A stretch of DNA of 59,390 bases from Rhizobium sp. Q54 (GTDB taxonomy: Bacteria; Pseudomonadota; Alphaproteobacteria; Rhizobiales; Beijerinckiaceae). The position numbers were made by a program, and so were the translations under genes. Shown here piece by piece: positions 22,677-36,593 of this stretch. The stretch lies in NCBI GenBank assembly GCA_945878875.1, contig CAMCUC010000013.1:1-59390 (forward strand), written 5' to 3'. The notes beneath the pieces are model-generated. The model made no database searches. It was not told where the DNA came from and saw only the letters and a list, made by a program, of their open reading frames with translations. How positions within the stretch are numbered: the stretch's first letter is position 1; each line of letters begins with the position of its first letter.

Positions 22677-24284
22677 TTAGGCTGACAGACGCTGCAACAA
22701 TGCGTCGGAAAGCCGCCGTCCGTAATGACGAATGCGGCGTACATGCCCGTTCAGAAACGACCGATTGGACCCGGCATTGGAGCCGATCGTCATCGCGTCA
22801 ATTTGCGAAAGCTCCAGAACGCCCGAACTTGAAACCGACGAAGATCCATTGATAGAAACAGAACCCAAATCGGCGCCGTATGCCAACGCAACGCGCGCAG
22901 ACGAGGAAGATGAAAAAGCGCCCTGCAAACTCGTAGTAAAAGCACCTGCCGTCTTCCGCATAGAAATATCGAAAGTTCCGCCAGCGCCCCCGAATGCGTT
23001 GACTTCCCCCAATGCTGAATTGGTGGAATTGCGAAGATGCAAAAGATCTCCTCGAGAACTGGTGGTAAAACGACTGCCATCAAGCAGAAAAGTGCCTGCC
23101 GAACGGCTCAACCAGCCAGCCATGTTCGCCGCATCAACGCGAACATCGTCTGCACCGCGAAAGCTGGCGGTATCCCACGTCGGTATCCAGGACGTCGCGA
23201 ACGAGCCTCGCTCGCATTGCGCAAACTTAACATCCCCGGAGACGCCAAGCGATAAAGCTCCGGATGAAGGCACGAAGCTAAACGAACGACGTGAAGGATA
23301 CGCCCCAACACCAGACACGATCGCCGAAGCGACACCCGATAACGCAATCGACCCCAAGCCGTAAAACGAAATCGTGTAAGGCTCAGCCACAACGGAAACA
23401 ATTTGCGACGAGGGGGCCTCGCTGCGCACGATCAAATTCGTCCGGGACTCCTCAACCAAAAGCCCCAACGGCACCGCGCTAGCGGGATCGTGATCAAGAC
23501 GCGGCGCATGAAACGGAACCGCCTGGGATCGGACATACGACCGAACGCTGGACCCCTGACTGATGTATTCAAGCTGGGCCCCCCACAATGCAAGCTTCTT
23601 TCCCGTCCCTGCATACGTGGGACTTGCGTGCAACATCGTCCCGCGCGCATCATTTGGACGATCCGATGCAGCTACTATAAAATAAACAAATGAAGCACCC
23701 GGCAAAACCTTGAAACATATCGAAATTCGAAACCACCCATCACCCGCAGGCTCAATCGAACTCGACACAACCGGCGCATTGATCGTAAAAGTCCTGGTCT
23801 GCGTCAACACGCCGTTCACGAGGTCGGCGATCACAAAACCGCCTGCTACATAACCTGGCGCGATAACAAGCAATTGCACAAACCGTCGGCCTGAATCCTT
23901 GACGAAAACCGAGCCTGCATAACAACCATCACCCGGAATAGGGCGCACCTGATAAACAATATGCCGTCCGCCACTGTCGCCCTCGTCGATAACATCAGCC
24001 GAGACAGCGCCATCAGGACCAGTTTCTGAACCAGCGACCGATCCTGCTCCGAAAGCTGAAATACCTTCGCGCAACCACCCCACGGTGAACTGTTCGGAGT
24101 AAAGGCACAAATTATGAGGCGAGACAGCAAGGCGCCCCGCGCCGTCTATTCGCGACGCCAGACTGCCCCTAGTATACATCAACCGTGAATCGATCCGACC
24201 CGATAAAAAGTCAAAATCAAGAACAGCTGCAGGCGCAAAAGAGCCTCCGGAGCCTAGTCCCCGCAAATGGCCAAGCCCGATCAT
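22677..24284 (-). CDS. Phage tail fibre / head-spike-like protein
   Basis: 535 residues. The middle part has the LLVEESRTNLIV ... WIPT motif common in phage fibre and head-spike proteins, with duplicated carbohydrate-binding-like beta domains before it. The C-terminus is a concanavalin-like region rich in Ser and Gly. It is likely the distal receptor-binding part of the particle. The start overlaps the DUF2793 stop in an ATGA junction. Base composition is visibly more AT-rich than the chromosomal flanks, as is usual for fibre genes acquired by exchange. Confidence 0.7.
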   Translation of the reverse strand: MIGLGHLRGLGSGGSFAPAAVLDFDFLSGRIDSRLMYTRGSLASRIDGAGRLAVSPHNLCLYSEQFTVGWLREGISAFGAGSVAGSETGPDGAVSADVIDEGDSGGRHIVYQVRPIPGDGCYAGSVFVKDSGRRFVQLLVIAPGYVAGGFVIADLVNGVLTQTRTFTINAPVVSSSIEPAGDGWFRISICFKVLPGASFVYFIVAASDRPNDARGTMLHASPTYAGTGKKLALWGAQLEYISQGSSVRSYVRSQAVPFHAPRLDHDPASAVPLGLLVEESRTNLIVRSEAPSSQIVSVVAEPYTISFYGLGSIALSGVASAIVSGVGAYPSRRSFSFVPSSGALSLGVSGDVKFAQCERGSFATSWIPTWDTASFRGADDVRVDAANMAGWLSRSAGTFLLDGSRFTTSSRGDLLHLRNSTNSALGEVNAFGGAGGTFDISMRKTAGAFTTSLQGAFSSSSSARVALAYGADLGSVSINGSSSVSSSGVLELSQIDAMTIGSNAGSNRSFLNGHVRRIRHYGRRLSDALLQRLSA

Positions 24285-25411
24285 GATACGAGCGCGCCGG
24301 CAAGAACGAACGAGTTTGAAGCGGTTGCCAGCAGCGAAACGCTCGCGTGGCGCCCTCCGCTCCTGAATGCATTTTCAACATGGCCAATTGAAACGTCGAT
24401 GCCACCGGAAAAACTAAGAACCCCGGCACCGCATTGAATGCAAGCGCAGGAAAACCCAACACGGAGCCCAGCAGGCGCGACAACGCTGACTGGCAAACTT
24501 GAAGTAAAGCAAATGATCCGCCCATCGTCGGAAGCGCTCAGAACGCGCGTTTGCGATGCATCGGACACAAGTGCGCCAATGCCTAGCCGATAGCGGTTTC
24601 CTGCAAAATCATCAGAGAAAAACCCATCACCGTCCGCCCGCGCCCGCTCGACCCCACCGGCGACAAAAGACAACGCGTCAGCGGCAACATTGGCTAACCC
24701 CGTATCCTGGTCTCCAAGAAACCGAAGCCCGGGAACGCCCGCAGCCCCACCGCTAAAACCAACCGCGCCGGAAGCCGGATCAATCTCGAGGCCCACGCGC
24801 CAGTTCGCACCATCATCGGAAACTTTAATACGAAACTTGTCATCGCCCATGAGCCCGGTCTCGGCGCGCGCCGACCATGCTGTTTGATAGATTTGAGATA
24901 CGCTTGAACCAGGATATTGCTTGTTCAAAGTGAGACGCAAATCCCCATTACCACCTTCGCTCTGCGTACGCGCGGCAAACAGAATCGCGTTCAGTTTCGC
25001 AGCAAACGGGTTGCCGGCATCCGCCGTCATCCCGATCCCCAGCCGCTGCAAATTCTGTAGTTGCGACAGCTTGGTTTCAAACGCAGACCAGCCGCTTTCA
25101 TCAAACACAAAAAGCGCACTCTCGTTGGCTACCCACGCAAGCCAGCCAACATGCGGAGCAAGAAACCGCCATCCAGCTTTATCCCAATAGGCAATCTGGT
25201 TGACGCGACCGGCAAAAATCCCAGTAGCCGCCGCATCGATAATGAACCGCTCGCCTTGCCGCGGATCGGCAGTTGGCGAAATTACATTACGGGCCGATAC
25301 AGACAATTGAACGCAAGCGTCAAGCAGCGTCAAAGCCTCATTATGAGTCACATGCTTTTGCGCTTGCGCAGCTTCTAAATATGGCAAAGCAAGATTCGCG
25401 GAATCAGCCAT
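24281..25411 (-). CDS. DUF2793 tail-associated protein
   Basis: 376 residues beginning NLALPYLEAAQAQKHVTHNE, the hallmark of DUF2793, followed by ALTLLDACVQLSV and repeated aromatic segments (YWDKAGWRFL). DUF2793 proteins are found at the distal end of GTA and prophage tail modules in alphaproteobacteria and are thought to belong to the tail tip or fibre. It follows the gp15 remnant by 36 bases and overlaps the fibre gene by four. Confidence 0.85.
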   Translation of the reverse strand: MADSANLALPYLEAAQAQKHVTHNEALTLLDACVQLSVSARNVISPTADPRQGERFIIDAAATGIFAGRVNQIAYWDKAGWRFLAPHVGWLAWVANESALFVFDESGWSAFETKLSQLQNLQRLGIGMTADAGNPFAAKLNAILFAARTQSEGGNGDLRLTLNKQYPGSSVSQIYQTAWSARAETGLMGDDKFRIKVSDDGANWRVGLEIDPASGAVGFSGGAAGVPGLRFLGDQDTGLANVAADALSFVAGGVERARADGDGFFSDDFAGNRYRLGIGALVSDASQTRVLSASDDGRIICFTSSLPVSVVAPAGLRVGFSCACIQCGAGVLSFSGGIDVSIGHVENAFRSGGRHASVSLLATASNSFVLAGALVS

Positions 25412-25447: not shown

Positions 25448-26149
25448 TTACATAATTTGGAGCAATTCTTCATAAGCCAACCCGCGCCCGACGATTGAGC
25501 TCATTTGAAAAATACGTACCCTAATATGCGACTGGTGCGAGCTGAAATCCTCCAACTCCTCTGCGCTGCTATAAAACGCAAATTGAGCGTTTGAACGAAG
25601 CACACGAAGCGCGACGCCGTCCCTCAAAATCTCGATTTCGTAGGACTCGCTTTCCTCGCCCAGCGGCGCTTCAAGCGACGTCCAGCCATCTGCCTCAATA
25701 CGGCCACGACGAATGAAAGACACCTGAACGCCATCAATCCCGCGACGAGCCGATTCACGCACCGGTGCATACGGCAAAAGCGCCAGTTTTCTGGCCTGCG
25801 TCGTAACCTCAATGGCCGAGGGATCGCCATGACCTGCGGAAGCAGCTGCAATGCGATAGGTCTGCGGCGCATCAATCAAATTAATGTCCGTGACCAGAGG
25901 GACAACGCCGCTGTCCAGAAACACAACCTCTGCGCCAGCAGGGATGACCTCATCGCCCAAGCGATCCTGCCCACCAAGCCCACGTAAAAGTTTTGATAAA
26001 CGCCACGTACGGGGCGCAACCAAATCAGCGAACACGAATGAGAGGACCTCCCAACCATTGTCGCGACGAAGCGCAAACGCCGTACGACCGGCAAGAGCTT
26101 GCGAGGGATCAACAGACGCCAGAGAGCGGTCAAGCGCCAGCACGAGCAA
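25448..26149 (-). pseudogene. C-terminal remnant of GTA gp15 (tail tip/host-interaction protein)
   Basis: 233 codons that look like only the end of gp15. Segments such as LAGRTAFALRRDNGWEVLSF and LVAPRTWRLSKLLRGLGGQD match the conserved C-terminal part of the large (over 1,000-residue) gp15, while the phage-tail and TIM-barrel-like domains are absent. The frame opens only with a TTG and has no ribosome site of its own. Immediately upstream, in a different frame, lies the start of gp13. The simplest reading is a deletion from early gp13 to late gp15. The fragment itself is free of stops, so expression of a truncated product cannot be excluded. Confidence 0.8.
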
Positions 26150-26205
26150 AAAGTTGTCGCGCCGCTTGCTATAGAGGCAAGCAATTGCGGAGAAATGTCG
26201 CGCAT
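26131..26205 (-). pseudogene. N-terminal remnant of GTA gp13 (DUF2163)
   Basis: The ATG at 26205, ten bases after the gp12 stop, begins MRDISPQLLASIASGATTFC followed by SCWRLT, the typical N-terminus of gp13/DUF2163 tail proteins. After about 25 codons the resemblance ends, and the sequence in another frame becomes the gp15 C-terminus. Read on in frame, it makes an unrelated 109-residue product stopping at 25876. gp13 would be about 290 residues when whole. Confidence 0.78.
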
Positions 26206-26215
26206 GTCGCCCCGC

Positions 26216-26851
26216 TTACGGAATGATTTCAATCAATGGAATCTTTGGGATGTCGCCAGCTTCAAAAGCCGCAAGATCAATCTCGAGATAATCGGTGTCA
26301 AAGCGCGCAGGCGTATCGAATGTAAAGCCCGCTGAGACAAGCACCTCTTGCGGCGGCGTATGATCTGCGTGAAACCGCAACGTCCCTTTTACCGGATCGA
26401 TCTCGTAGCGGGAACTGGCTGCTTCCACACCACCGACTGCAACACGCAACGAGCCCGCAACGGGCTTTATGATATCGCGAAAATAGGGAGCAAAGCTTGC
26501 GCCATAGCGCTTAACCAATTGGAAATCGCGCCGGAGCCCGTCGCCCTTCCCAAGCGCCTGATCCAGTGGACCAGGAGCAGCGTTCGGTGCGCAGGATTTG
26601 CAATCGCTACGATCACGCCAGCGAAACCCGTACAATCTCCCCCGGCGCTCTTCAAAAAAATTGATAACCTCCGCAATCGCCGCAAGCGATTTAATCCCGG
26701 AGCCGGCGTCCCATCGCCTCCGGGAGTGAGCCCAACGCTGGTTGCGCTCCTCGCGTCCAGAACCCATCACCACGATATCGGTACGACGCTCTGGCCCGCC
26801 GCGCGCGCCAAGGGCCACGTCGAGCGGAAAAAGGATTTCATGGAAGCTCAT
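26216..26851 (-). CDS. GTA gp12-like tail protein (DUF2460)
   Basis: About 211 residues from the ATG at 26851 (MSFHEILFPLDVALGARGG). DUF2460 features are visible: PERRTDIVVMGSGREERN, WAHSRRRWDAG, a FEERRGRLYGFRWRD segment and the C-terminal FDTDYLEIDLAAFEAG. In GTAs gp12 is the distal tail protein at the tail tip. The gene is full length and stops just before the gp13 remnant, so the deletion boundary lies after it. Confidence 0.9.
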   Translation of the reverse strand: MSFHEILFPLDVALGARGGPERRTDIVVMGSGREERNQRWAHSRRRWDAGSGIKSLAAIAEVINFFEERRGRLYGFRWRDRSDCKSCAPNAAPGPLDQALGKGDGLRRDFQLVKRYGASFAPYFRDIIKPVAGSLRVAVGGVEAASSRYEIDPVKGTLRFHADHTPPQEVLVSAGFTFDTPARFDTDYLEIDLAAFEAGDIPKIPLIEIIP

Positions 26852-26931
26852 ATGATTGATCCAGGACAAGGAAGAGCAGTGGGAGCAATGCTAAATTCAA
26901 ACATCTGATCAACAAAAGCATGAGGACGAAG

Positions 26932-27168
26932 ATGAGCCATGTTCCACATGGACTACACGACGAATTCCCGAACGACCACGCGCGCATACATAAGCTTAAA
27001 ACAAGCGATAAACATTTCGTGGGCCTTGCTGATCGCTATCACGAGCTCAATCGTGCTATCCACCGCGTTGAAGCTGAAGTTGAGCCCACAAGCGATGATG
27101 TCCTTAAAGACATGAAGAAGCAACGCCTCGCACTCAGAGACGAAATCGCTGCGATAATTGCGACCTAG
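26932..27168 (+). CDS. YdcH/DUF465 small protein, opposite strand inside GTA cluster
   Basis: About 78 residues from the ATG at 26932, preceded by GAGGA. It has the DUF465 signature: FPNDHARIHKLKTSDKHF, then YHELNRAIHRVE and a basic helical tail (LKDMKKQRLALRDEIAAII). These are short helical-hairpin proteins of unknown function found in most alphaproteobacteria. It lies between gp11 and gp12, facing the structural genes, so it is probably a later insertion or an independent unit with its own promoter. Confidence 0.85.
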   Translation: MSHVPHGLHDEFPNDHARIHKLKTSDKHFVGLADRYHELNRAIHRVEAEVEPTSDDVLKDMKKQRLALRDEIAAIIAT

Positions 27169-27184
27169 TAGACCAATGCGACGG

Positions 27185-27754
27185 TCACGACCCACGTCGC
27201 CCACGAGCAACTGCTCGCGCGAGTGCGCTTGCAATCTGCACTTGAGAACGCTGAAAACCTGAAACATCGGGCGTTGAGATAGTAACATTTACATGCGTTG
27301 CGGTACTCTGTCCGCCTGATGCCGCAACGCCAAGACGCCCATCAGGCCCGCGCGCCAATGGCATTATCGCCTCGGCACCTCGCTCGCCCATAAGGCCCAA
27401 TCCGCCGCCCGAACCAAAGAACGTGGGGCGAGCCACAACACCGCCATCAGCAAATGGCGTCACAGGAACTGATCCCATGTTACCGCCGCCGATCGAAGAG
27501 CCCAAAGACGAAAGGACAGAGGAAAGCCCCTGTTGCAATGGTTTCAAGCCTGCGTTGAGCGCGATGTCGGACATCGACAGAGCAACATTGCGCAACGTAT
27601 CGTCAAGAGACTTCCCGCCCGCTATCGCTCCGGCAAACGCTCGCGTCAAGGAACGGGACAAGCGCTCGGCGGATACATCGACGCCATCCAGACCGCGCCT
27701 GATTGCATCGATGTCTTGCGTTGCAAAAACGGTATTAAAGTCATCGCTAGCCAT
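27185..27754 (-). CDS. GTA gp11-like tail tape measure protein
   Basis: 189 residues. The middle holds Gly/Ala-rich helical repeats (SLTRAFAGAIAGGKSLDDTL) and the family end motif FADGGVVARPTFFGSGGG followed by GLMGERGAEAIMPLARG. GTA tape measure proteins are short compared with phage ones, matching the short GTA tail. The start overlaps the tail chaperone gene by eight bases. Length and motifs look intact. Confidence 0.88.
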   Translation of the reverse strand: MASDDFNTVFATQDIDAIRRGLDGVDVSAERLSRSLTRAFAGAIAGGKSLDDTLRNVALSMSDIALNAGLKPLQQGLSSVLSSLGSSIGGGNMGSVPVTPFADGGVVARPTFFGSGGGLGLMGERGAEAIMPLARGPDGRLGVAASGGQSTATHVNVTISTPDVSGFQRSQVQIASALARAVARGRRGS

Positions 27755-27932
27755 TGCTCACTCCTTGATTGCCGTGATCGGGAAAAGCGCGCATGAGACC
27801 ATGCAGATCTGGCGCCCCGCCGCTCTCAAGAGGCGCGCCATAGACGCCCTCCCATGCAGCCGCTAACTCACATGGAGATATCGACCAAAAGTCGTTGGGG
27901 GCCAGCCGCAGAACGCCAAGGCCGAACGCCAT
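27747..27932 (-). CDS. GTA tail assembly chaperone (gp10.1/rcc01693-like), start unclear
   Basis: From the internal ATG at 27932 it reads MAFGLGVLRLAPNDFWSISP ... ELAAAWEGVYG ... LMRAFPD, the conserved small tail assembly chaperone. The frame stays open upstream as ...RASAPFPWRAAM, which matches the usual N-terminus (FPW..AM.FG), but contains no ATG, GTG or TTG before an in-frame stop. The true start is therefore lost, non-canonical (an ATC near 28013 exists), or the internal ATG is used. It sits between gp10 and gp11 as in other GTAs. Confidence 0.75.
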   Translation of the reverse strand: MAFGLGVLRLAPNDFWSISPCELAAAWEGVYGAPLESGGAPDLHGLMRAFPDHGNQGVSNG

Positions 27933-27997: not shown

Positions 27998-28330
27998 CTA
28001 GGGGTGCGATACGCTTTCAGCTGATGCGCCAAAAGCAGCAACCAGTAAATCCGAAGCCAGCTTCACGTAAGCAGGGATGCCACCCTCCACCGACATCCGC
28101 GCAATTTCATCATCGCCCAGATCACTTCCACCCCCACGCACGCCTGCTGCAATCACACGAAGGAGATCTCGTGACGAAAGACGTCCGCCCTCAAAACGGC
28201 CTGCCAGACCGACAAGATCGTCAGCGCCAAAGGCTGTTTCCAGTTCCGCGAGCGCTCCAAGCGTTAACCGGAGCGTATAATTTTTTCCGTCAAAAACTGC
28301 GTCAACGTCGCCGCGTCTTGCATTGCCCAT
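27998..28330 (-). CDS. GTA gp10-like protein (gene transfer agent family, DUF3356)
   Basis: About 110 residues from the ATG at 28330, which has GAGG seven bases upstream; a GTG at 28342 is also possible. Features include DAVFDGKNYTLRLTLGALAE, LETAFGADDL and LLRVIAAGVRGGG. The family acts in tail assembly next to the major tail protein. It follows gp9 with an 8-base gap and precedes the tail chaperone. Confidence 0.88.
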   Translation of the reverse strand: MGNARRGDVDAVFDGKNYTLRLTLGALAELETAFGADDLVGLAGRFEGGRLSSRDLLRVIAAGVRGGGSDLGDDEIARMSVEGGIPAYVKLASDLLVAAFGASAESVSHP

Positions 28331-28338
28331 GGCGCGCC

Positions 28339-28749
28339 TCACAATGCGGTGAATGTCAAAAGACCAGCTGATTCCAGCGACAGCTCGAACGTAACTTCTC
28401 CGGCATGCTCACCGCGATAATCGAGACTGGATATCTGGAACGCGCCCTGAATGATCCCGAAGGAGGGAGCAACAATCTGCCAATTGCGTATCAAACCGTC
28501 GAAGAACGTTTGCCTGATCAGCATATCCGAAGCGCCATCCTTGAAGACGCCGGAGCCTGCAACGCTGGCGCGACGTACGCCAGCGCCGCCAAGCAGCTCG
28601 CGCCAGCGTCCCGCTGATTCCTGATTCGTAATATCAACTGGATCAGCATTCAACGCGAACCGCTGCGTACGAAGGCCAGCAACTGTTATAAATTCGCCTG
28701 TGCCATCGTCGATTTTTAACAATAGGTCTTTGCCTTTTTGCGCAGCCAT
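28339..28749 (-). CDS. GTA gp9-like major tail protein (TP901-1 type)
   Basis: 136 residues with the TP901-1 major tail features: KGKDLLLKIDDGTGEF, LRTQRFALNADPVDITNQES and ELLGGAGVRRASVAGSGVF. It polymerises into the tail tube. A strong AGGAGG site precedes the ATG at 28749. Intact length for the family. Confidence 0.93.
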   Translation of the reverse strand: MAAQKGKDLLLKIDDGTGEFITVAGLRTQRFALNADPVDITNQESAGRWRELLGGAGVRRASVAGSGVFKDGASDMLIRQTFFDGLIRNWQIVAPSFGIIQGAFQISSLDYRGEHAGEVTFELSLESAGLLTFTAL

Positions 28750-28761
28750 AAAGCCTCCTGA

Positions 28762-29172
28762 TTATTTTGGTTCAGTGATTGCGCGCAGACGAAGCCTTGC
28801 GCGAACAAAACGATTCGAATTCTCACGGGCCGCCTCAACCTCACGCACCTGCAAATTTACCAGCGTATGCCCCTCAAGAACCAAAGCTTGATCGTCAAGC
28901 GCCGCGCTTGCGAGCACTGCAATCTCCAGAGCCTCCCGGGCCCCTGTGCGCTCACTCCAGACGTCGAGCGTTAACGCATGCTCCTGGCCGCGCTCCGTCA
29001 TCGTTGACCAATCGCGACTGCGGCTTTGCGCAAAAGCGATATAGGGCTGAGGCGCGCCGCGTGGCGCCTCATCATGCACGCGCGCGCCGCCAAGCCTTGC
29101 AACAAGCGCAGGCGTAGCAAGAAGTCTTGCACGGACCGCTCTACGCAGGGAGATATCGGCAGAAGCAATCAC
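28762..29172 (-). CDS. GTA gp8-like protein (DUF3168)
   Basis: 136 residues, GTG start at 29172 with an AAGGAGG site. DUF3168 motifs: LRRAVRARLLATPALVARLG, then HDEAPRGAPQPYIAFAQSRS and LTLDVWSERTGAREALEI. It is thought to be a tail terminator or head-tail joining component. Ten bases separate it from gp7 upstream and 12 from gp9 downstream. Confidence 0.92.
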   Translation of the reverse strand: MIASADISLRRAVRARLLATPALVARLGGARVHDEAPRGAPQPYIAFAQSRSRDWSTMTERGQEHALTLDVWSERTGAREALEIAVLASAALDDQALVLEGHTLVNLQVREVEAARENSNRFVRARLRLRAITEPK

Positions 29173-29182
29173 GACAGCCTCC

Positions 29183-29509
29183 TTATGCTATTTCGCTGCA
29201 GCGACAATTAAGCGTGCGTCGTCGTCCGTCGCCATCGACGGCTGCGTGAATCAAAAAAATGCGGCTATTAAGCCGAAGGCGCATCGCACCCGTTACGTCT
29301 GGTCGCCAGCGAATGGTTATCGAATGAGTAATTACGCTTTCTTCACGCTCGCCCTCAAAACGCTCAATTCCGACAAGGGCTGTGACACGCGCCCAAATTA
29401 CGTCGATAAAAACCCAAGAGCGTTCAATTCCGCCTGTATCGTCTTGCGTGTTAACAGGCGCTTCGAGAACCAGCCTGCGATCAAAATCGCTGATACGTAT
29501 TCGCTTCAT
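29183..29509 (-). CDS. GTA gp7-like head closure/adaptor protein
   Basis: 108 residues, with ISDFDRRLVLEAPVNTQDDT followed by GGIERSWVFIDVIWARV and ITHSITIRWRPDV, the phage SPP1 gp16-like head closure pattern. It overlaps gp6 by four bases. It joins the connector ring to the tail. Confidence 0.9.
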   Translation of the reverse strand: MKRIRISDFDRRLVLEAPVNTQDDTGGIERSWVFIDVIWARVTALVGIERFEGEREESVITHSITIRWRPDVTGAMRLRLNSRIFLIHAAVDGDGRRRTLNCRCSEIA

Positions 29510-30078
29510 GCGATCCTCATGCGCCGGTAGGGAGCAATCAGCGCAGCGACCGCAGGCGGCATGCGCTCAAAAGCGCCATCGCTTTCAACGTCACCTCGTT
29601 GCTCATACCAGCGGGCAATCAACAAGCGCATTGCAGTTTTCAGAGTTTCAGGCACGCCCTGAGAATTGGATGAAAATCCGAGTTCAACATCAATTTCTAT
29701 CCCGCTGATTGTTCTTTCGGGTTCTGGTGGTTTGGTCAGGAATCGTACTCGTCCAAGCCCGCCAGCAACGCTTGCAACATAGGAAGATGGCGCAATCACA
29801 ACGCTGACGCCTGCTGCCGTTAGAGTGCGCAGCGCAACCACCTGCCGAACTGGCGCAAGCGGTATAACGATGTCGCCTTCAGGCCACACGTCCATCACGA
29901 TCCGCCAGGTCTGCGAGATCAGCATCCGCCCCGATGCGCTTTCAACAACAAGGCGGGCGGAAGCAATAAGGGCAGCGACAAGTTCGTCTTCGTCTGCGTG
30001 GTCGATGCGGAGCCAATTTTTTGCTTGAACGAGCAAAATGGGCTCGACGGCAGGCGGTATGAGAAGTATGGGAATCAT
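29506..30078 (-). CDS. GTA gp6-like head-tail connector protein
   Basis: 190 residues. N-terminus LVQAKNWLRIDHADEDELVA and AALIASARLVVESASGRMLI is the phage connector (phiE125 gp8-like) signature, followed by a beta-rich half with GIEIDVELGF and LKTAMRLLIARWYEQRGD. It forms the connector ring below the portal. The ATG is 34 bases from the divergent trypsin-like gene. Confidence 0.92.
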   Translation of the reverse strand: MIPILLIPPAVEPILLVQAKNWLRIDHADEDELVAALIASARLVVESASGRMLISQTWRIVMDVWPEGDIVIPLAPVRQVVALRTLTAAGVSVVIAPSSYVASVAGGLGRVRFLTKPPEPERTISGIEIDVELGFSSNSQGVPETLKTAMRLLIARWYEQRGDVESDGAFERMPPAVAALIAPYRRMRIA

Positions 30079-30112
30079 CTGCGCTCCGCGCGTTGAAGAG
30101 ATTGGAGATCAC

Positions 30113-30868
30113 ATGCGTCTGCTTTTGCGCCTCGTCGCTTTCGCGCCTGCGACATTGATGTTGGCTTTTTTGCAAAGCGACGCTGCGAGCGCACTCGTCG
30201 GGGCATCGGTCGAGGCGGGGCCGCTTGAGAGTTCTCAAGTTGTTCTGGTCACAACGATCAAGAGGCGCAGCAGTGGCTTTTGCACGGGCGTCGTTATTTC
30301 TCCCACAATTATTTTGACGGCAGGCCATTGCGTACATCGTGCAAACGCCATCGCCGTTAACGCCGCTGCCGTTGGTACGACGCCGCAATTGATAGAAGCT
30401 TCGGCCCATGTGCTTCATCCAGAATTTCGCGACAATGCTGCAGCTCGGCGCGAGCGCTCAATTGATCTTGCTTTATTGCGATTGAACGAGGCGCTGCCAG
30501 CCCATTTTGCACAGGCTCGGCTCAGCTCACGCGCTGTAACGCAAGCTGGAGAATTGTTTCAGATCCTCGGCTTTGGATTGACGCAGGAAGGCGTCGAGCG
30601 ATCGGCCGGACGCTTGCGCGCAGGAGCATTGCAGGCGCGCGAGCCGCTTTCGCGCATCCTCTTGTGGGCGAGAGACCCACAAGAGAAGGGCTTTGGCGCA
30701 TGTACGGGGGATTCTGGCGGGCCTATCTTTGACGCAGACGGACAAGTGTTTGCTATCACTTCGTGGTCCACTGGCGCTGGAAACAAGAGCTGCGGCGCCT
30801 TAACGCAAGCAGCTCTCATTGCACCCCAGCGCGCATGGATCACGAAGACGATTGCAAGCTGGCGTTGA
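30113..30868 (+). CDS. Secreted trypsin-like (S1) serine protease inside GTA cluster
   Basis: About 251 residues from the ATG at 30113, preceded by GGAG. Signal peptide-like N-terminus (MRLLLRLVAFAPATLMLAFL). Complete catalytic triad: His in LTAGHCVHRA, Asp in RSIDLALLRL, Ser in ACTGDSGGPIF. Cysteines at CTGVV/GHC and ACTG/SCG could form disulfides. It would act in the periplasm or outside. It lies on the opposite strand exactly between gp6 and the capsid gene, with 34 and 3 bases of spacing, so both neighbours are undamaged. Its link to the particles is unknown; cargo or independent insertion are both possible. Confidence 0.88.
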   Translation: MRLLLRLVAFAPATLMLAFLQSDAASALVGASVEAGPLESSQVVLVTTIKRRSSGFCTGVVISPTIILTAGHCVHRANAIAVNAAAVGTTPQLIEASAHVLHPEFRDNAAARRERSIDLALLRLNEALPAHFAQARLSSRAVTQAGELFQILGFGLTQEGVERSAGRLRAGALQAREPLSRILLWARDPQEKGFGACTGDSGGPIFDADGQVFAITSWSTGAGNKSCGALTQAALIAPQRAWITKTIASWR

Positions 30869-30871
30869 AAA

Positions 30872-32119
30872 TCAGGTGGTTCCGAACTTCAGAAGTTTGA
30901 TGGCGTCAAAATCCTGAACGCCGCCGCCTACGCGCTTGGTGGTGTAGAACAGCACATAGGGCTTGGCGGAATAAGGGTCGCGAAGCATGCGCACGCCGCG
31001 CCGATCGACAACCAGATAACCGCGCTGGAAATCGCCGAACGCAATCGCGAAGCTGTCGGCTGCAATGTCCGGCATGTCTTCGGACTCAACCAGTGGGAAA
31101 TTCATCAGGTTCGCAGCCTGGCCTGGCCCAGTCGGCGGTTGCCACAAATATTCGCCGGTACTGGTCTTGAGCTTTCGAATGCTTGATTGCGTTTTGCGGT
31201 TCATAACAAAGCGTGCGTTCTGACGATAACCCGACCGCACCGAATAGATGAGGTCTACGAGCACGTCTGAGGGGTTCGCCGCAGGCAAGGCGCCCGCTGC
31301 GCCTGTTGGGACGTAAGCTGTTCTGCCCCAGCTCCAGGCTGCAATTGTCGTCTTGGGATAGCTCAAGAAGCCTGTCGGGCGGTTGACGCCGTTTCCATTC
31401 ACGAACGCTGCGCTCTCCTGTTCGGCAAAGGCGGCGTCAACCTCTTCTGCAATCCATTGTTCGATGTCCACGGCTGCATCATCAAGCAGCGATTGCGTTG
31501 CGGCAGGCATGGCGTAAAGCTCCATCGCAGCAAAGCTCATGTCAGCGAGTTTCTGATTATTCGTTTCCGGACGCGGATCGGCCTCGGCAACCCAGCCGGA
31601 TGCCGGACCATTGGTGGAGAAAGCCTTGCGATAGGTTGCTGTTGAGATTTCACGCACCGATGCAATTGCACGAATGGGAGACGCCGCCGTCATGCGACGG
31701 AGAATTTCACGCTCTGCTGGAACGGGAACGAGAAACCCACCGTCCGGGCCTGAGCCAGATGAAAGAGCCTTTTCTTCGAGGGCTTTCAAGCCAACGCTGT
31801 CGCCGCTGCGGATGTAATCGCGGAACGCACCCTTGTGTTCCCGTAGCAACGGATCATTGTCGCGCGCCTCGCCCGCAAGCCGCGGGCGGCTTTTCTCCAT
31901 GATCGAATTGTCGAGACGACGCTTGGTTTCATCCAGCGCGCGATCAATGCGCGCAAGCTTTTCTTCGGTCACCACGTCGCCAGCCATGCGACGCTCAATC
32001 TGCGCCATACGCTCATCGTTGGTTTCGCGAAAGGCAGCGAACGCTTGATTAATGTCGCTGATGTGGTCGCCGCCAGTGGTCTTGACTTCAATCGTGGGAG
32101 AAATTGAATTCGGATGCAT
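30872..32119 (-). CDS. GTA gp5-like HK97-fold major capsid protein
   Basis: About 415 residues from the ATG at 32119, which has GAGGA upstream; ten extra codons to 32149 are not needed. The N-terminal third is a scaffold-like coiled coil (ERMAQIERRMAGDVVTEEKL), then FRDYIRSGD, ALSSGSGPDGGFLVPVPAE and the HK97 shell domain with TQSLLDDAAVDIEQWIAEEV and VMNRKTQSSIRKLK. It forms the head shell after cleavage by the prohead protease. Convergent with the trypsin-like gene. Confidence 0.95.
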   Translation of the reverse strand: MHPNSISPTIEVKTTGGDHISDINQAFAAFRETNDERMAQIERRMAGDVVTEEKLARIDRALDETKRRLDNSIMEKSRPRLAGEARDNDPLLREHKGAFRDYIRSGDSVGLKALEEKALSSGSGPDGGFLVPVPAEREILRRMTAASPIRAIASVREISTATYRKAFSTNGPASGWVAEADPRPETNNQKLADMSFAAMELYAMPAATQSLLDDAAVDIEQWIAEEVDAAFAEQESAAFVNGNGVNRPTGFLSYPKTTIAAWSWGRTAYVPTGAAGALPAANPSDVLVDLIYSVRSGYRQNARFVMNRKTQSSIRKLKTSTGEYLWQPPTGPGQAANLMNFPLVESEDMPDIAADSFAIAFGDFQRGYLVVDRRGVRMLRDPYSAKPYVLFYTTKRVGGGVQDFDAIKLLKFGTT

Positions 32120-32208
32120 GAAAATCCTCGTGACAAAATGCCGTCGCACAAACGCCTCCGGACGCGACGGCGGCGCGCGGAGCAGCTGAAAGAAAAGACG
32201 ATTAAACT

Positions 32209-32763
32209 TCAGCCGCGCGCGAGTTGCACCTGCAGCGCAGTAGCTGCTTTACGCCAGCGCGTGGGCGCGTCCTGCTTCACGCTTTCCACGCGCGCTTGCA
32301 GCAACATAGGAAAGGTGACGATGGATATCTCAATCAGGTCGAGCGCATAGAGACGGCGCACGCCAGATTTCGCGTCTTTGACGGCGCGGCGCGTGCGATA
32401 GCCAATCGACAAGCCGTCGATGGCGCCATCGCGCATCAGCGCAAGGGTTTCGCGAGCACGGGCAACATTAAGGTTCAATTTTCCGCGCACTTTGAGGCCG
32501 CGTGAATCCTCGATAAGGCTCGTCCATATACCGAGCGGATGTCCGGGCTCATGTTGCCAAAGCATCTTGACGCTACTGGCGCCAAGCTTTCGCAGGCCAT
32601 CAGCAAAGGCGCCGGGCATTACAATATCGCCGCCCAGATCAAGCGCGCCGAACAGGCTGGCGTAGCCTTCAAAGACGCCTTCTGCATCGACATTGTTGAT
32701 GTCGAGCGGTGCGCGCTTGGTCTCGATGGACAGGCTTTTGATATAGGCTTTCTTCTCGTTCAT
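32209..32763 (-). CDS. GTA gp4-like HK97 prohead protease
   Basis: 184 residues. Motifs of the U35/HK97 prohead protease: EGYASLFGALDLGGDIVMPG, MLWQHEPGHPLGIW with the catalytic His, and GAIDGLSIGYRTRRA with the catalytic Ser. It removes the scaffold part of the capsid protein. Its ATG overlaps the stop of a small upstream gene (ATGA). Confidence 0.93.
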   Translation of the reverse strand: MNEKKAYIKSLSIETKRAPLDINNVDAEGVFEGYASLFGALDLGGDIVMPGAFADGLRKLGASSVKMLWQHEPGHPLGIWTSLIEDSRGLKVRGKLNLNVARARETLALMRDGAIDGLSIGYRTRRAVKDAKSGVRRLYALDLIEISIVTFPMLLQARVESVKQDAPTRWRKAATALQVQLARG

Positions 32764-33523: not shown

Positions 33524-34711
33524 TCAAGCACCAGCGTTTTCGCTGCTATTAACAGGTGCATACCCCAACGCCGCGCGCTTCTCGTCATCGCTCAAAAAAT
33601 CCGCAGCGCCAACGCGGCGCCATTCAGATTCGCGCTCAGCGGCAAGCGCTTCAAGTCCGTCGAGATTGGCCGCAAAACTTACGCCGGGATAGGAGAGGGC
33701 GAGCCAGGCCTCGAAACTTTTTTGCGTGCGCTTCACGAGCGGGATAATCGTTTGCCGCCAAAAGGCGCGGTTGGCCTCCTGATAATTTGAATGCGTATTA
33801 TCGCCGGGCAATCCCAACAATAATGGCGGGACGCCGAAAGCCAGCGCAATTTCGCGGGCTGCGTCGCTTTTGGCCGCTGCAAAATCCATGTCTTTAGGAC
33901 TGAGCGAGAGAGCTTTCCAATCAAGCCCGCCTTCCAGCAGCAGGGGGCGCCCTGCATTGCGGGCGCCGGAGAAGTTTTCATCCAGCTCCGTCTTCAAGCG
34001 CTCGAATTGTTCGTCCGACAGCGCGCCACCGGCGCCTGCATAAACCAGCGCGCCGGAGGGACGGGCTGAGTTATCCAGCAGCGCCTTGCTCCAGCTCGCG
34101 GCGGCATTATGCACGTCGAGAGGCGTTTGCGCTGCGTGAAGCGGCGCAAACCCATAATGATCGTCTAGCGGATGAAACAGGTGCAAGTGCAATATCGGCG
34201 AACTCCCGTCGGGTTCAACTTGATAGCGCACCACATCGGCGCCGATACGGTATTCATAAGCGGACGGCCAGCCGTTGGCGCCAGCGACGACGCCCATGCG
34301 ATCAGGCTGCAGGCAATAAAGCTCGCGCGGGGCGCTATCGAGAGAAACCGCTTCGATATAGGCGTTTCCAAACAAAGTCAGATTGCTGAATACGGCCTCC
34401 AGAAAAGCCGGGCCTGCCTCGCGCATGTTTGGGCGCGCCAGCAATTGCGCCAGAGGGTGAGCCGAGTCATCGTCGCCGTTTTCATACACAAGCCAGGGAA
34501 TCGAGGCCGCGTTTTCTGCGATCAATCGCACGCAGCGATAGACGATTGCGTTGCGCTCGTAGCCTTGGCGCGTCAATTCAGTGCTGGTGCGCTGCGTCCA
34601 GCGTGGCTGCCCAAGCGAGTGCATAGCCAGCAAAGCGCCTGCGCGAGAGGCTTTTCTTTCGGCCACGGGTTGGCGGCCCGCGCCCATCAGGCGAGAGAAG
34701 ATTGAGGGCAT
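33524..34711 (-). CDS. GTA gp3-like HK97-type portal protein
   Basis: 395 residues. Portal features: ERNAIVYRCVRLIAENAASI, then PLAQLLARPN, LFGNAYIEAV, and the late LAFGVPPLLLGLPGDNTHSN followed by YQEANRAFWRQTIIPL. It forms the dodecameric portal ring through which DNA is packaged. Full length and undamaged. It follows the terminase by 42 bases. Confidence 0.95.
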   Translation of the reverse strand: MPSIFSRLMGAGRQPVAERKASRAGALLAMHSLGQPRWTQRTSTELTRQGYERNAIVYRCVRLIAENAASIPWLVYENGDDDSAHPLAQLLARPNMREAGPAFLEAVFSNLTLFGNAYIEAVSLDSAPRELYCLQPDRMGVVAGANGWPSAYEYRIGADVVRYQVEPDGSSPILHLHLFHPLDDHYGFAPLHAAQTPLDVHNAAASWSKALLDNSARPSGALVYAGAGGALSDEQFERLKTELDENFSGARNAGRPLLLEGGLDWKALSLSPKDMDFAAAKSDAAREIALAFGVPPLLLGLPGDNTHSNYQEANRAFWRQTIIPLVKRTQKSFEAWLALSYPGVSFAANLDGLEALAAERESEWRRVGAADFLSDDEKRAALGYAPVNSSENAGA

Positions 34712-34753: not shown

Positions 34754-36064
34754 CTACACGCGCCGCACTTTTGGCTCTGGCGCGCGCTTGGTGAGCGCCA
34801 GCGAGGTAATCGCCCACACCAAAGCGTCCAGCCTGTCGGGACTGCGCCGACCGGGCAGGCCATCGGGGCCAAAGGCGCACATCTCATCTTCAAGCGCGGG
34901 GAAGGCGCCGACGTGGCGCACCCTGCCCTGCTCGTAGAGTTGGGCGGCGGGGGCAGCGCGCAAGTACTTTCCGCGCGTAGCGCGTACTTGCTTCACCATG
35001 ACGTTTGGATCAGCTTCCGCAATCACAGCGGCGACCATTTCCCCGCCCTGATTGACCTCTGCAACCAGGCCATCCGCTTCGTGGCGCCGTGCGCAGGCAA
35101 TTGCCGCGCGCGCCCATTTTGCTGGTCTTGCAGCGCCAAGCGAACAATCTTCCAGCACATAAAGAAATCCGTCTTCGCAGCGCCCCACTGCGATAATTCC
35201 GCAACTATCGGCGCGGCCTGAAGACGAGACCGGCGGGTCGATGGCGACTACAATGTGTCTGAGCGGCGGGGCTTTCTCGACACGGAATTGCTCCAGCATA
35301 TCGCGCGTCCACAAAGCATCAGGTGCGTCGTCAACAATCTCGCCCTCCAGCTCCTGACGGCCAAGGCGGGTGCCTGCATAGCGCCCGACAATGGATTCAA
35401 TAAACGCTGGCGCAAGGTGTTCCGCGTTTGCATAAGTTGAAGCGCGCGTGAGCGCAGTGCGCGTATCAGCCATCAGCCGCGCCAGTAATTTGGAAGGGCG
35501 CGGCGTCGTTGTTATAAGCTGGCGCGGATGCTCGCCAAGTCGAAGGCCAAATTGCAGCATGTCAAACACCTCTTGAGCATGGCGCCATTTGGCAAATTCA
35601 TCGAGCCAGGCGCATTCAAATTGCGGCCCGCGAAGGCTCTCGGGATCTTCGGCGGAAAACACCTGCGCTATCGCGCCATTCTTCCATTCAAGCCGTCGGC
35701 GAGAAGGCTCCCAGACGGGGCGCTCATGTCGGGAATGAGTAGAGAGGATGCCTGATACGCCCTCTATCATCACGTCGCGAACGTCCGCCGCCGTCTCGCC
35801 AACAAGCGCGATGCGCCCTACGGGCTTGCGCGCAAATCCGGGCTCGCCAAGCGCAAGGCCGCGCACCCATTGTGCTCCGGTTCGCGTTTTTCCGGCGCCG
35901 CGTCCGCCCAGCACCAGCCAGATCAGCCATGGCTCGCAATTGGCGCCAAGCTCGGGGGGCATTTGATCGGCGCGGCCCTGCATCGACCATTCAGCGAGGA
36001 TGCGTTCAATCTCCCGTGCGCCAAGCGTTTTGATATAGTCAGAATGCTTATTGCTCGCGTGCAA
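34754..36064 (-). CDS. GTA gp2-like large terminase (TerL)
   Basis: About 436 residues. ATPase Walker A LGGRGAGKTRTGAQWV and Walker B CAWLDEFAKW are followed by the coupling motif TTTPRPSKLL and nuclease acidic residues (VVAIDPPVSS, late SPDRLDALVWA). It cuts and pumps DNA into the head. ATG codons at 36145 and 36181 would overlap gp1 by about 100 bases or more, so the TTG at 36064, overlapping gp1 by 17, is preferred. That start is not certain. Confidence 0.93.
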   Translation of the reverse strand: MHASNKHSDYIKTLGAREIERILAEWSMQGRADQMPPELGANCEPWLIWLVLGGRGAGKTRTGAQWVRGLALGEPGFARKPVGRIALVGETAADVRDVMIEGVSGILSTHSRHERPVWEPSRRRLEWKNGAIAQVFSAEDPESLRGPQFECAWLDEFAKWRHAQEVFDMLQFGLRLGEHPRQLITTTPRPSKLLARLMADTRTALTRASTYANAEHLAPAFIESIVGRYAGTRLGRQELEGEIVDDAPDALWTRDMLEQFRVEKAPPLRHIVVAIDPPVSSSGRADSCGIIAVGRCEDGFLYVLEDCSLGAARPAKWARAAIACARRHEADGLVAEVNQGGEMVAAVIAEADPNVMVKQVRATRGKYLRAAPAAQLYEQGRVRHVGAFPALEDEMCAFGPDGLPGRRSPDRLDALVWAITSLALTKRAPEPKVRRV

Positions 36065-36593
36065 TGCGCTCCACGAGGCGCGCAAGCTCGTCGCGCAAGA
36101 CGGCGATGTCGCGCGGCGCTGGTTCGTCGTGTTCGACGTTGTCATCGCCGGCTCCGGGTTTTGGCCGCGAGGCGGCCCCAAAACGCCGCAATTCGGCGAA
36201 GGTTTTTACAAGGCTCGCCAGCAAACGCGCATTGCGTTCACCCATGGCGACTGATTCGCCCGAAAGCCGCGCCTCAACGGAGGCGAGTTCCGCCTCGACC
36301 GCGCGCTCAAGGCGCCGTCGCAAGGCTTCAACGTCCACCGGGCCAGGGGGCAGCGGCGTTTGAATGACTGCAAGTTCAGACTCTGGTGCAAGAATATCTG
36401 ACTTGGGCGCTTCATCTGACTTGCGGCGAATGGGCGATGACCGCAGCGGCCAATTTTCGCGGCGTCGGAACCGCAAAAACGCGTCGCCCCCCATGTTGAG
36501 AGAGGCGGCGATGGTCGCCAGCGGCTCGCCGTCATCATAACGACGACGCGCGTCGATCAGCGCTGCCGCGCTTTTTTTAGTCGCTTTTTTCAT
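36048..36593 (-). CDS. GTA gp1-like small terminase / DNA-packaging protein
   Basis: 181 residues from the ATG at 36593. N-terminal helix-turn-helix-like part (LIDARRRYDDGEPLATIAAS) and a long helical C-terminal half (LRRRLERAVEAELASVEARL, LARLVERIARE). Position directly before TerL and the DNA-binding-like N-terminus make it the small terminase equivalent. In GTAs this subunit has lost sequence-specific packaging. It is the first gene of the structural cluster. Confidence 0.75.
   Translation of the reverse strand: MKKATKKSAAALIDARRRYDDGEPLATIAASLNMGGDAFLRFRRRENWPLRSSPIRRKSDEAPKSDILAPESELAVIQTPLPPGPVDVEALRRRLERAVEAELASVEARLSGESVAMGERNARLLASLVKTFAELRRFGAASRPKPGAGDDNVEHDEPAPRDIAVLRDELARLVERIAREQ

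What the first reader, a model, noticed from the sequence alone, without database searches (positions are those of the whole stretch)
25448..26215. Deletion scar joins the start of GTA gp13 to the end of gp15
After an intact gp12, the ATG at 26205 starts a typical gp13 (DUF2163) N-terminus, but within about 25 codons the sequence becomes, in a different frame, the conserved C-terminal end of gp15. Everything between (rest of gp13, the NlpC/P60 peptidase gp14 and most of gp15) is missing. At the join the DNA can be read as CWRLT of gp13 in one frame and LVLALD of gp15 in another, so a short shared sequence around 26130-26150 may have guided the recombination. Loss of the tail-tip peptidase and host-contact protein should make the particles non-infectious, although head genes remain open.
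Basis: partly seen in the sequence, partly recalled or inferred. Interest (0 to 1): 0.75.

Follow-up and report, generated by a model that had tools for sequence, protein, structure and literature searches.

The report
Gene transfer agent missing its tail tip
In this bacterium the genes for a virus-like DNA-transfer particle have lost, in one probably recent deletion, the part that builds the tail tip, so the particle can probably no longer deliver DNA, while the nearest relative found still has the complete set.

Summary
The deletion is real as sequence. A collinear sister MAG (G022, gp12 94% identical) carries complete gp13 (295 aa), gp14 (146 aa) and gp15 (1285 aa). The window lacks 4448 bp of this: it keeps gp13 codons 1-26 (26205-26128) and, out of frame, the last 225 residues of gp15 (26125-25448). 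The join at 26128/26127 is blunt. No second gp13, gp14 or gp15 was found in the 92.8%-complete genome. The other GTA genes examined are open, with no clear relaxation of selection since the split (p = 0.12), so the deletion is probably recent. Loss of gp14 alone in R. capsulatus gives empty heads without tails (PMC7296036), so delivery should be abolished. This fits the published idea that pseudogenised GTAs are recent 'cheaters' (PMC10883770): a new, well-resolved member of a known kind. Outside the window is something more surprising: a seven-genome clade of the same genus whose GTA clusters lack tail tube, terminator and tape-measure genes, yet keep head and baseplate genes under purifying selection.

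The parts
26127..26128 (.). Deletion join: gp13 codon 26 side (26128) abuts gp15 side (26127); 4448 bp absent relative to sister locus L031 (9891-14338)
26128..26205 (-). gp13 (baseplate hub) N-terminal remnant, 26 codons; the frame continues as unrelated sequence to a stop at 25876
25448..26125 (-). gp15 (megatron) C-terminal remnant, counterpart of sister residues 1061-1285; by RcGTA numbering this falls in the fibre-binding domain (985-1304)
   Evidence: domain limits from PMC7296036 passages
26216..26869 (-). gp12 (distal tail protein, DUF2460), intact
27185..27754 (-). gp11 (tape measure; role recalled), open
27747..27932 (-). tail assembly chaperone (Phage_TAC_6)
27998..28342 (-). gp10, open
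28339..28749 (-). gp9 tail tube protein (Phage_tail_2), open
28762..29172 (-). gp8 (Tail_completion_gp17; terminator role recalled), open
29183..29509 (-). gp7 (stopper role recalled), open
29506..30078 (-). gp6 head-tail connector (Phage_connect_1), open
30872..32149 (-). gp5 major capsid, open
32209..32763 (-). gp4 prohead protease, open
33524..34711 (-). gp3 portal, open
34754..36181 (-). gp2 large terminase, open
24281..25411 (-). DUF2793 protein downstream of gp15, open (fibre part, inferred)
22677..24284 (-). 535-aa fibre-like protein (function inferred from position), open
   Evidence: no Pfam match at E<=0.1

Best explanation
The locus is a GTA head-tail cluster of the R. capsulatus type that suffered one blunt-ended 4448-bp deletion. 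The deletion removed residues 27-295 of the hub gp13, all of the peptidase gp14 and the first 1060 residues of the megatron gp15 (shown by comparison with the sister). There is no microhomology at the join, so it probably arose by end joining or a replication error rather than by recombination between repeats (inferred). The baseplate can then not be built (inferred). By analogy with the gp14 knockout of RcGTA, cells that switch the cluster on would make heads without working tails and could not deliver DNA (inferred). The other GTA genes examined are still open and show no clear rise in amino-acid change, so the loss is probably recent compared with the split from the sister (partly shown). 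The lineage is thus a candidate GTA non-producer ('cheater') caught early in decay (inferred).
For: Sister L031 is collinear on both sides (94.5% identity over 9.9 kb upstream, 92.0% over 5.1 kb downstream) with all three genes complete. The own genome holds no PF09931 match, one gp13 match covering residues 1-27, one gp15 match, the remnant, covering residues 1049-1284, and no gp14 match at E<=1. Of 23 genus regions in hand with gp12 and at least 6.5 kb beyond it, 22 show gp13, gp14 and all three thirds of gp15 and only the window does not. gp3-gp12, DUF2793 and the fibre-like gene have no internal stops. Changes on the window branch (gp4-gp12, gp15 remnant, DUF2793, fibre-like gene) are 77 nonsynonymous to 116 synonymous, against 48 to 104 on the sister branch, Fisher p 0.12. 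The remnant's dN/dS against the sister is 0.051/0.219, about 0.23. The deleted genes match the RcGTA hub and megatron chains in the PDB. Removal of g14 in RcGTA gave empty heads without tails.
Against: The genome is a 91-contig, 92.8%-complete draft, so a second set in the missing part cannot be excluded. The empty gp14 answer has no positive control in that call. No reads were available to confirm the join. The N:S ratio is higher on the window branch, which could mean an older loss, but the test is weak. The polarised counts rest on distant outgroups (L092, L093) and on codons with a single difference; gp3 could not be polarised. No expression or particle data exist.
Confidence: 0.85

Rival explanations
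1. The join is an assembly or strain-mixture artefact and the dominant strain has an intact cluster.
For: The genome is a draft in 91 contigs and reads are not available.
Against: In the sister the flanks share no exact word longer than 6 nt within 25 nt of the breakpoints; within 100 nt the only shared word of 8 or more is one 8-mer, away from the join. So collapse of a repeat would not make this join (inference). The rest of the compared contig is collinear with the sister.
Confidence: 0.08
2. The shortened cluster is still a working reduced particle, for example heads or tails without the standard baseplate, kept by selection.
For: The other genes examined are open with low dN/dS against the sister. 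Reduced clusters lacking other tail genes are kept by purifying selection in the same genus.
Against: The deletion cuts inside two genes and shifts the frame, unlike the gene-boundary losses of the tube-less clade. Loss of gp14 alone prevented native RcGTA particles.
Confidence: 0.05
3. gp13-gp15 have moved or been replaced elsewhere in the genome, in the unassembled 7% or by unrelated tail-tip genes.
For: Completeness is 92.8%.
Against: In 51 genomes of the genus none showed two copies of the same part of gp15 or gp13; double matches were different pieces of one gene. Where the contig is long enough the set lies next to gp12. No second match was found in the own genome.
Confidence: 0.03

Closest known systems
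RcGTA head-tail cluster (Rhodobacter capsulatus)
   Same: Homologous structural genes in the GTA order; gp12 and the sister's gp13 and gp15 match the distal tail protein, hub and megatron chains of RcGTA
   Different: Here the hub, peptidase and most of the megatron are deleted
Pseudogenised GTA clusters of alphaproteobacteria ('cheater' lineages, PMC10883770 discussion, passages read)
   Same: Broken GTA genes in a lineage whose relatives keep them
   Different: Here the lesion is one large blunt deletion of the tail-tip module, probably recent, with an intact sister for comparison
R. capsulatus g14 knockout (PMC7296036 section 21)
   Same: Peptidase lost; particles were empty heads without tails
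   Different: A natural loss that also takes hub and megatron

Membership tests
RcGTA-type gene transfer agent cluster | Collinear terminase, portal, protease, capsid, connector, tail tube and distal tail genes | tested here: met
RcGTA-type gene transfer agent cluster | Complete baseplate: hub, peptidase, megatron | tested here: not met
   only remnants of gp13 and gp15 are left
RcGTA-type gene transfer agent cluster | Particles that package and deliver host DNA | not testable with these tools
   needs culture and microscopy
Pseudogenised GTA cluster | Lesion in genes that are intact at the same place in close relatives | tested here: met
Pseudogenised GTA cluster | Relaxed selection on the remaining genes | tested here: inconclusive
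   N:S 77:116 versus 48:104, p 0.12
Pseudogenised GTA cluster | No functional copy elsewhere in the genome | tested here: met
   with the limit that the genome is 92.8% complete and one search had no positive control

The most novel reading that the evidence does not exclude
GTA clusters of this genus shrink by whole modules and can stay useful. The window's tip-less cluster would then be a particle (or a lysis and DNA-packaging programme) still kept by selection without the standard baseplate, as the tube-less clade is kept without tube, terminator and tape measure.
Probability: 0.06. Interest if true: 0.8.

Novelty: new member of a known kind. Interest (0 to 1): 0.4.

Why it matters
GTA production lyses the producer, so theory expects non-producing cheaters. 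A species pair with an intact cluster on one side and a probably fresh, single-lesion loss of the delivery module on the other makes that idea testable in natural populations. In the same genus the survey shows further separate module losses and one long-lived tube-less form, so the genus is a good place to ask which GTA parts selection really needs.

Tried and rejected
Short shared sequence guiding the deletion: rejected. The join is blunt against L031, and the best common word within 25 nt of the breakpoints is 6 nt; random pairs of places in L031 reach 6 or more in 915 of 1938 draws.

gp15 reading at the join (LVLALD): rejected, it is gp13 DNA.

Same-species contigs in IMG/VR that might show the intact form: none among the 38 loci returned; the best gp12 identity was 64%, and the tool warns that records very near the window may be left out.

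Reading the retained gp15 C-terminus as a selected stand-alone fibre-binding protein: considered because G004 also keeps only gp15 residues 942-1283. G013 and G012 looked similar but their matches begin at the contig edge, so they are no evidence. Only 14 polarised changes fell in the remnant on the window branch (8 synonymous, 6 nonsynonymous), too few to decide.

A first dN/dS value for the gp15 remnant was in the wrong frame and was discarded; one search replaces it.

G017 lacks gp9 but its gp12 contig begins too near gp12, so I did not count it in the tube-less clade. The tree left out G020 and G006, which filled under 20% of the columns (37 of 39 rows used).

Literature: seven searches. 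Passages were read of PMC7296036 (and section 21), PMC10883770 and PMC9632790. All other papers were seen as listings only. The roles of gp7, gp8 and gp11 are recalled.

Full report
What is there. The window is one whole contig (C13, 59,390 bp) of a 2.84-Mb, 91-contig draft genome, 92.8% complete (contig length). On the minus strand it holds a gene transfer agent (GTA) head-tail cluster from the terminase (36181) to the fibre-like gene (22677). gp12 (26216-26869) is intact. The ATG at 26205 begins gp13; after 26 codons the sequence becomes, in another frame, the counterpart of the last 225 residues of gp15.

Comparison with an intact sister. It has gp13 of 295 aa, gp14 of 146 aa and gp15 of 1285 aa. 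BLASTN gives two blocks, 94.5% over 9.9 kb and 92.0% over 5.1 kb, which abut in the window at 26128/26127 and are separated by 4448 bp in L031. Lost are gp13 residues 27-295, the whole of gp14 and gp15 residues 1-1060. The sister's gp13 and gp15 match the RcGTA hub (E 4e-70) and megatron (E 1e-275) chains in solved structures; its gp14 found no PDB match at E<=0.001 but carries NlpC/P60, just above the curated cut-off.

The join. The last base matching the gp13 side is directly followed by the first base matching the gp15 side; two of the first six bases after the join differ from L031. The longest exact word shared within 25 nt of the two breakpoints is 6 nt, which random pairs of places reach in 915 of 1938 draws; within 100 nt one 8-mer is shared, away from the join. 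There is therefore no sign of recombination between repeats, and an assembler would have no long overlap from which to make this join falsely (inference).

No other copy found. The own genome has no PF09931 match (the same search rang in one of 14 control genomes), one gp13 match of 27 residues, one gp15 match, the remnant, and no gp14 match at E<=1 (which has no positive control). Of 23 genus regions in hand that hold gp12 and at least 6.5 kb beyond it, 22 show matches to gp13, gp14 and all three thirds of gp15; the window alone does not. The same holds for 29 of 31 loci from genome contigs (exceptions L065 and L072; several of these loci are the same genomes as the genus regions) and 18 of 18 from IMG/VR. 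That count asks for matches only, not for open frames, and leaves out clusters without gp12 or with too short a contig, such as G004 and G020.

Age and selection. gp3 to gp12, DUF2793, the fibre-like gene and two small downstream genes are free of internal stops against L031, and gp2 is open. gp1, gp3.5 and GTA genes outside the cluster were not examined. Pairwise dN/dS for gp3 to gp12 is 0.09 to 0.31, and for the gp15 remnant about 0.23. Changes polarised with the more distant L092 and L093 (gp4 to gp12, remnant, DUF2793, fibre-like gene; gp3 could not be polarised) give, on the window branch, 77 nonsynonymous and 116 synonymous, against 48 and 104 on the sister branch, p 0.12. The direction is that of relaxation but the test does not reach significance. 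I read this as a recent deletion; continued use cannot be told apart from it.

Consequence. In RcGTA the hub and megatron form the baseplate core, the megatron's first helices close the channel, and deletion of the peptidase gene alone prevented native particles and left empty heads without tails (PMC7296036, passages, section 21). The window's strain lacks all three, so DNA delivery should be lost (inference). A discussion passage of PMC10883770 says that pseudogenised GTA clusters may be recently emerged cheater lineages, and also names other possible reasons for loss. This locus fits that description and adds an intact sister for comparison.

Genus survey. In 51 genomes of the genus, matches at E<=0.001 were found for gp15 in 38, gp13 in 35, the capsid in 35, gp9 in 28 and gp12 in 33. 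Other broken clusters exist. G004 joins gp10 (residue 57) to gp15 (about residue 942), with a stop inside the capsid gene. G020 ends gp13 at residue 204 and has no gp15. G005 joins the terminase to gp6 (residue 65), has no capsid match, and also lacks parts of gp10 and gp11. gp15 is split in G007, G025 and G018 and holds a stop in G035 and G072; the capsid gene is split or holds stops in G006, G029 and G066. Many of these are fragmented drafts, so single frameshifts may be assembly errors.

A tube-less clade. In G031, G071, G019 and G066 the gp6 match ends 16 to 28 nt before the gp12 match begins, so gp7 to gp11 are absent. In G024 and G014 a gp7-like gene (G024: Phage_HCP, E 5e-7; weak similarity to gp7) lies between gp6 and gp12, and gp8 to gp11 are absent; G002 shows the same gp7-like end before gp12 at its contig edge. 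Searches with gp9, PF06199, a gp11 alignment and a gp8 alignment find nothing convincing anywhere in these seven genomes (one match of E 0.07 for gp11 in G066), while intact controls ring; completeness of the seven runs from 58% to 100%. The seven form one clade in a FastTree of concatenated proteins with support 1.0, and so do the two sub-types. Their gp5 and gp12 to gp15 show dN/dS of 0.02 to 0.25, like the one intact pair tested, G008-G025 (0.10 to 0.22), with many dS values above 1 and so near saturation. Against this, the G066 capsid gene is split. My reading is a GTA whose head joins the baseplate directly or through a very short neck (inference). Caulobacter GTA particles were reported with no visible tail although tail genes are present (PMC9632790, passage). 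Searches (listings only) showed no report of a GTA cluster without tube genes.

Verdict. It is a clear, probably recent loss of the GTA tail-tip module, a new member of a known kind. The tube-less relatives deserve their own study.

Noticed in passing
L041 6809-8014, L143 6039-7244, L042 12024-13229, L103 6037-7245, L144 374-1850, L049 9-1113, L048 1-725 (G031, G071, G019, G066, G024, G014, G002): A monophyletic group of seven genomes of the same genus whose GTA clusters lack gp8-gp11 (tail terminator, tube, tape measure) and in four also gp7, with clean gene boundaries, while capsid, distal tail protein, hub, peptidase and megatron stay under purifying selection: a possible short-tailed GTA.
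   Followed up: partly
L089 12389-13546 (G004): A second, independent deletion in the genus joins gp10 to the end of gp15 (from about residue 942) and so also leaves mainly the fibre-binding end.
   Followed up: partly
L045 2271-3505 (G020); L040 11165-13616 (G005): Further internal deletions: gp13 cut with gp14-gp15 gone; terminase joined to gp6 so that portal and capsid are gone while tail genes are kept.
   Followed up: no
L065 (Rhodopseudomonas sp. BR0M22): Another cluster in which gp12 is present but gp13, gp14 and gp15 give no match in the 20.6 kb held, and portal and capsid give none either.
   Followed up: no
window 30038-30868 (+): A trypsin-like serine protease gene lies antisense between gp5 and gp6; a relative is found in 31 of 50 genus regions searched, including tube-less ones.
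   Followed up: partly
window 26920-27168 (+): A DUF465 gene lies antisense between gp11 and gp12; found in 11 of 50 genus regions.
   Followed up: partly
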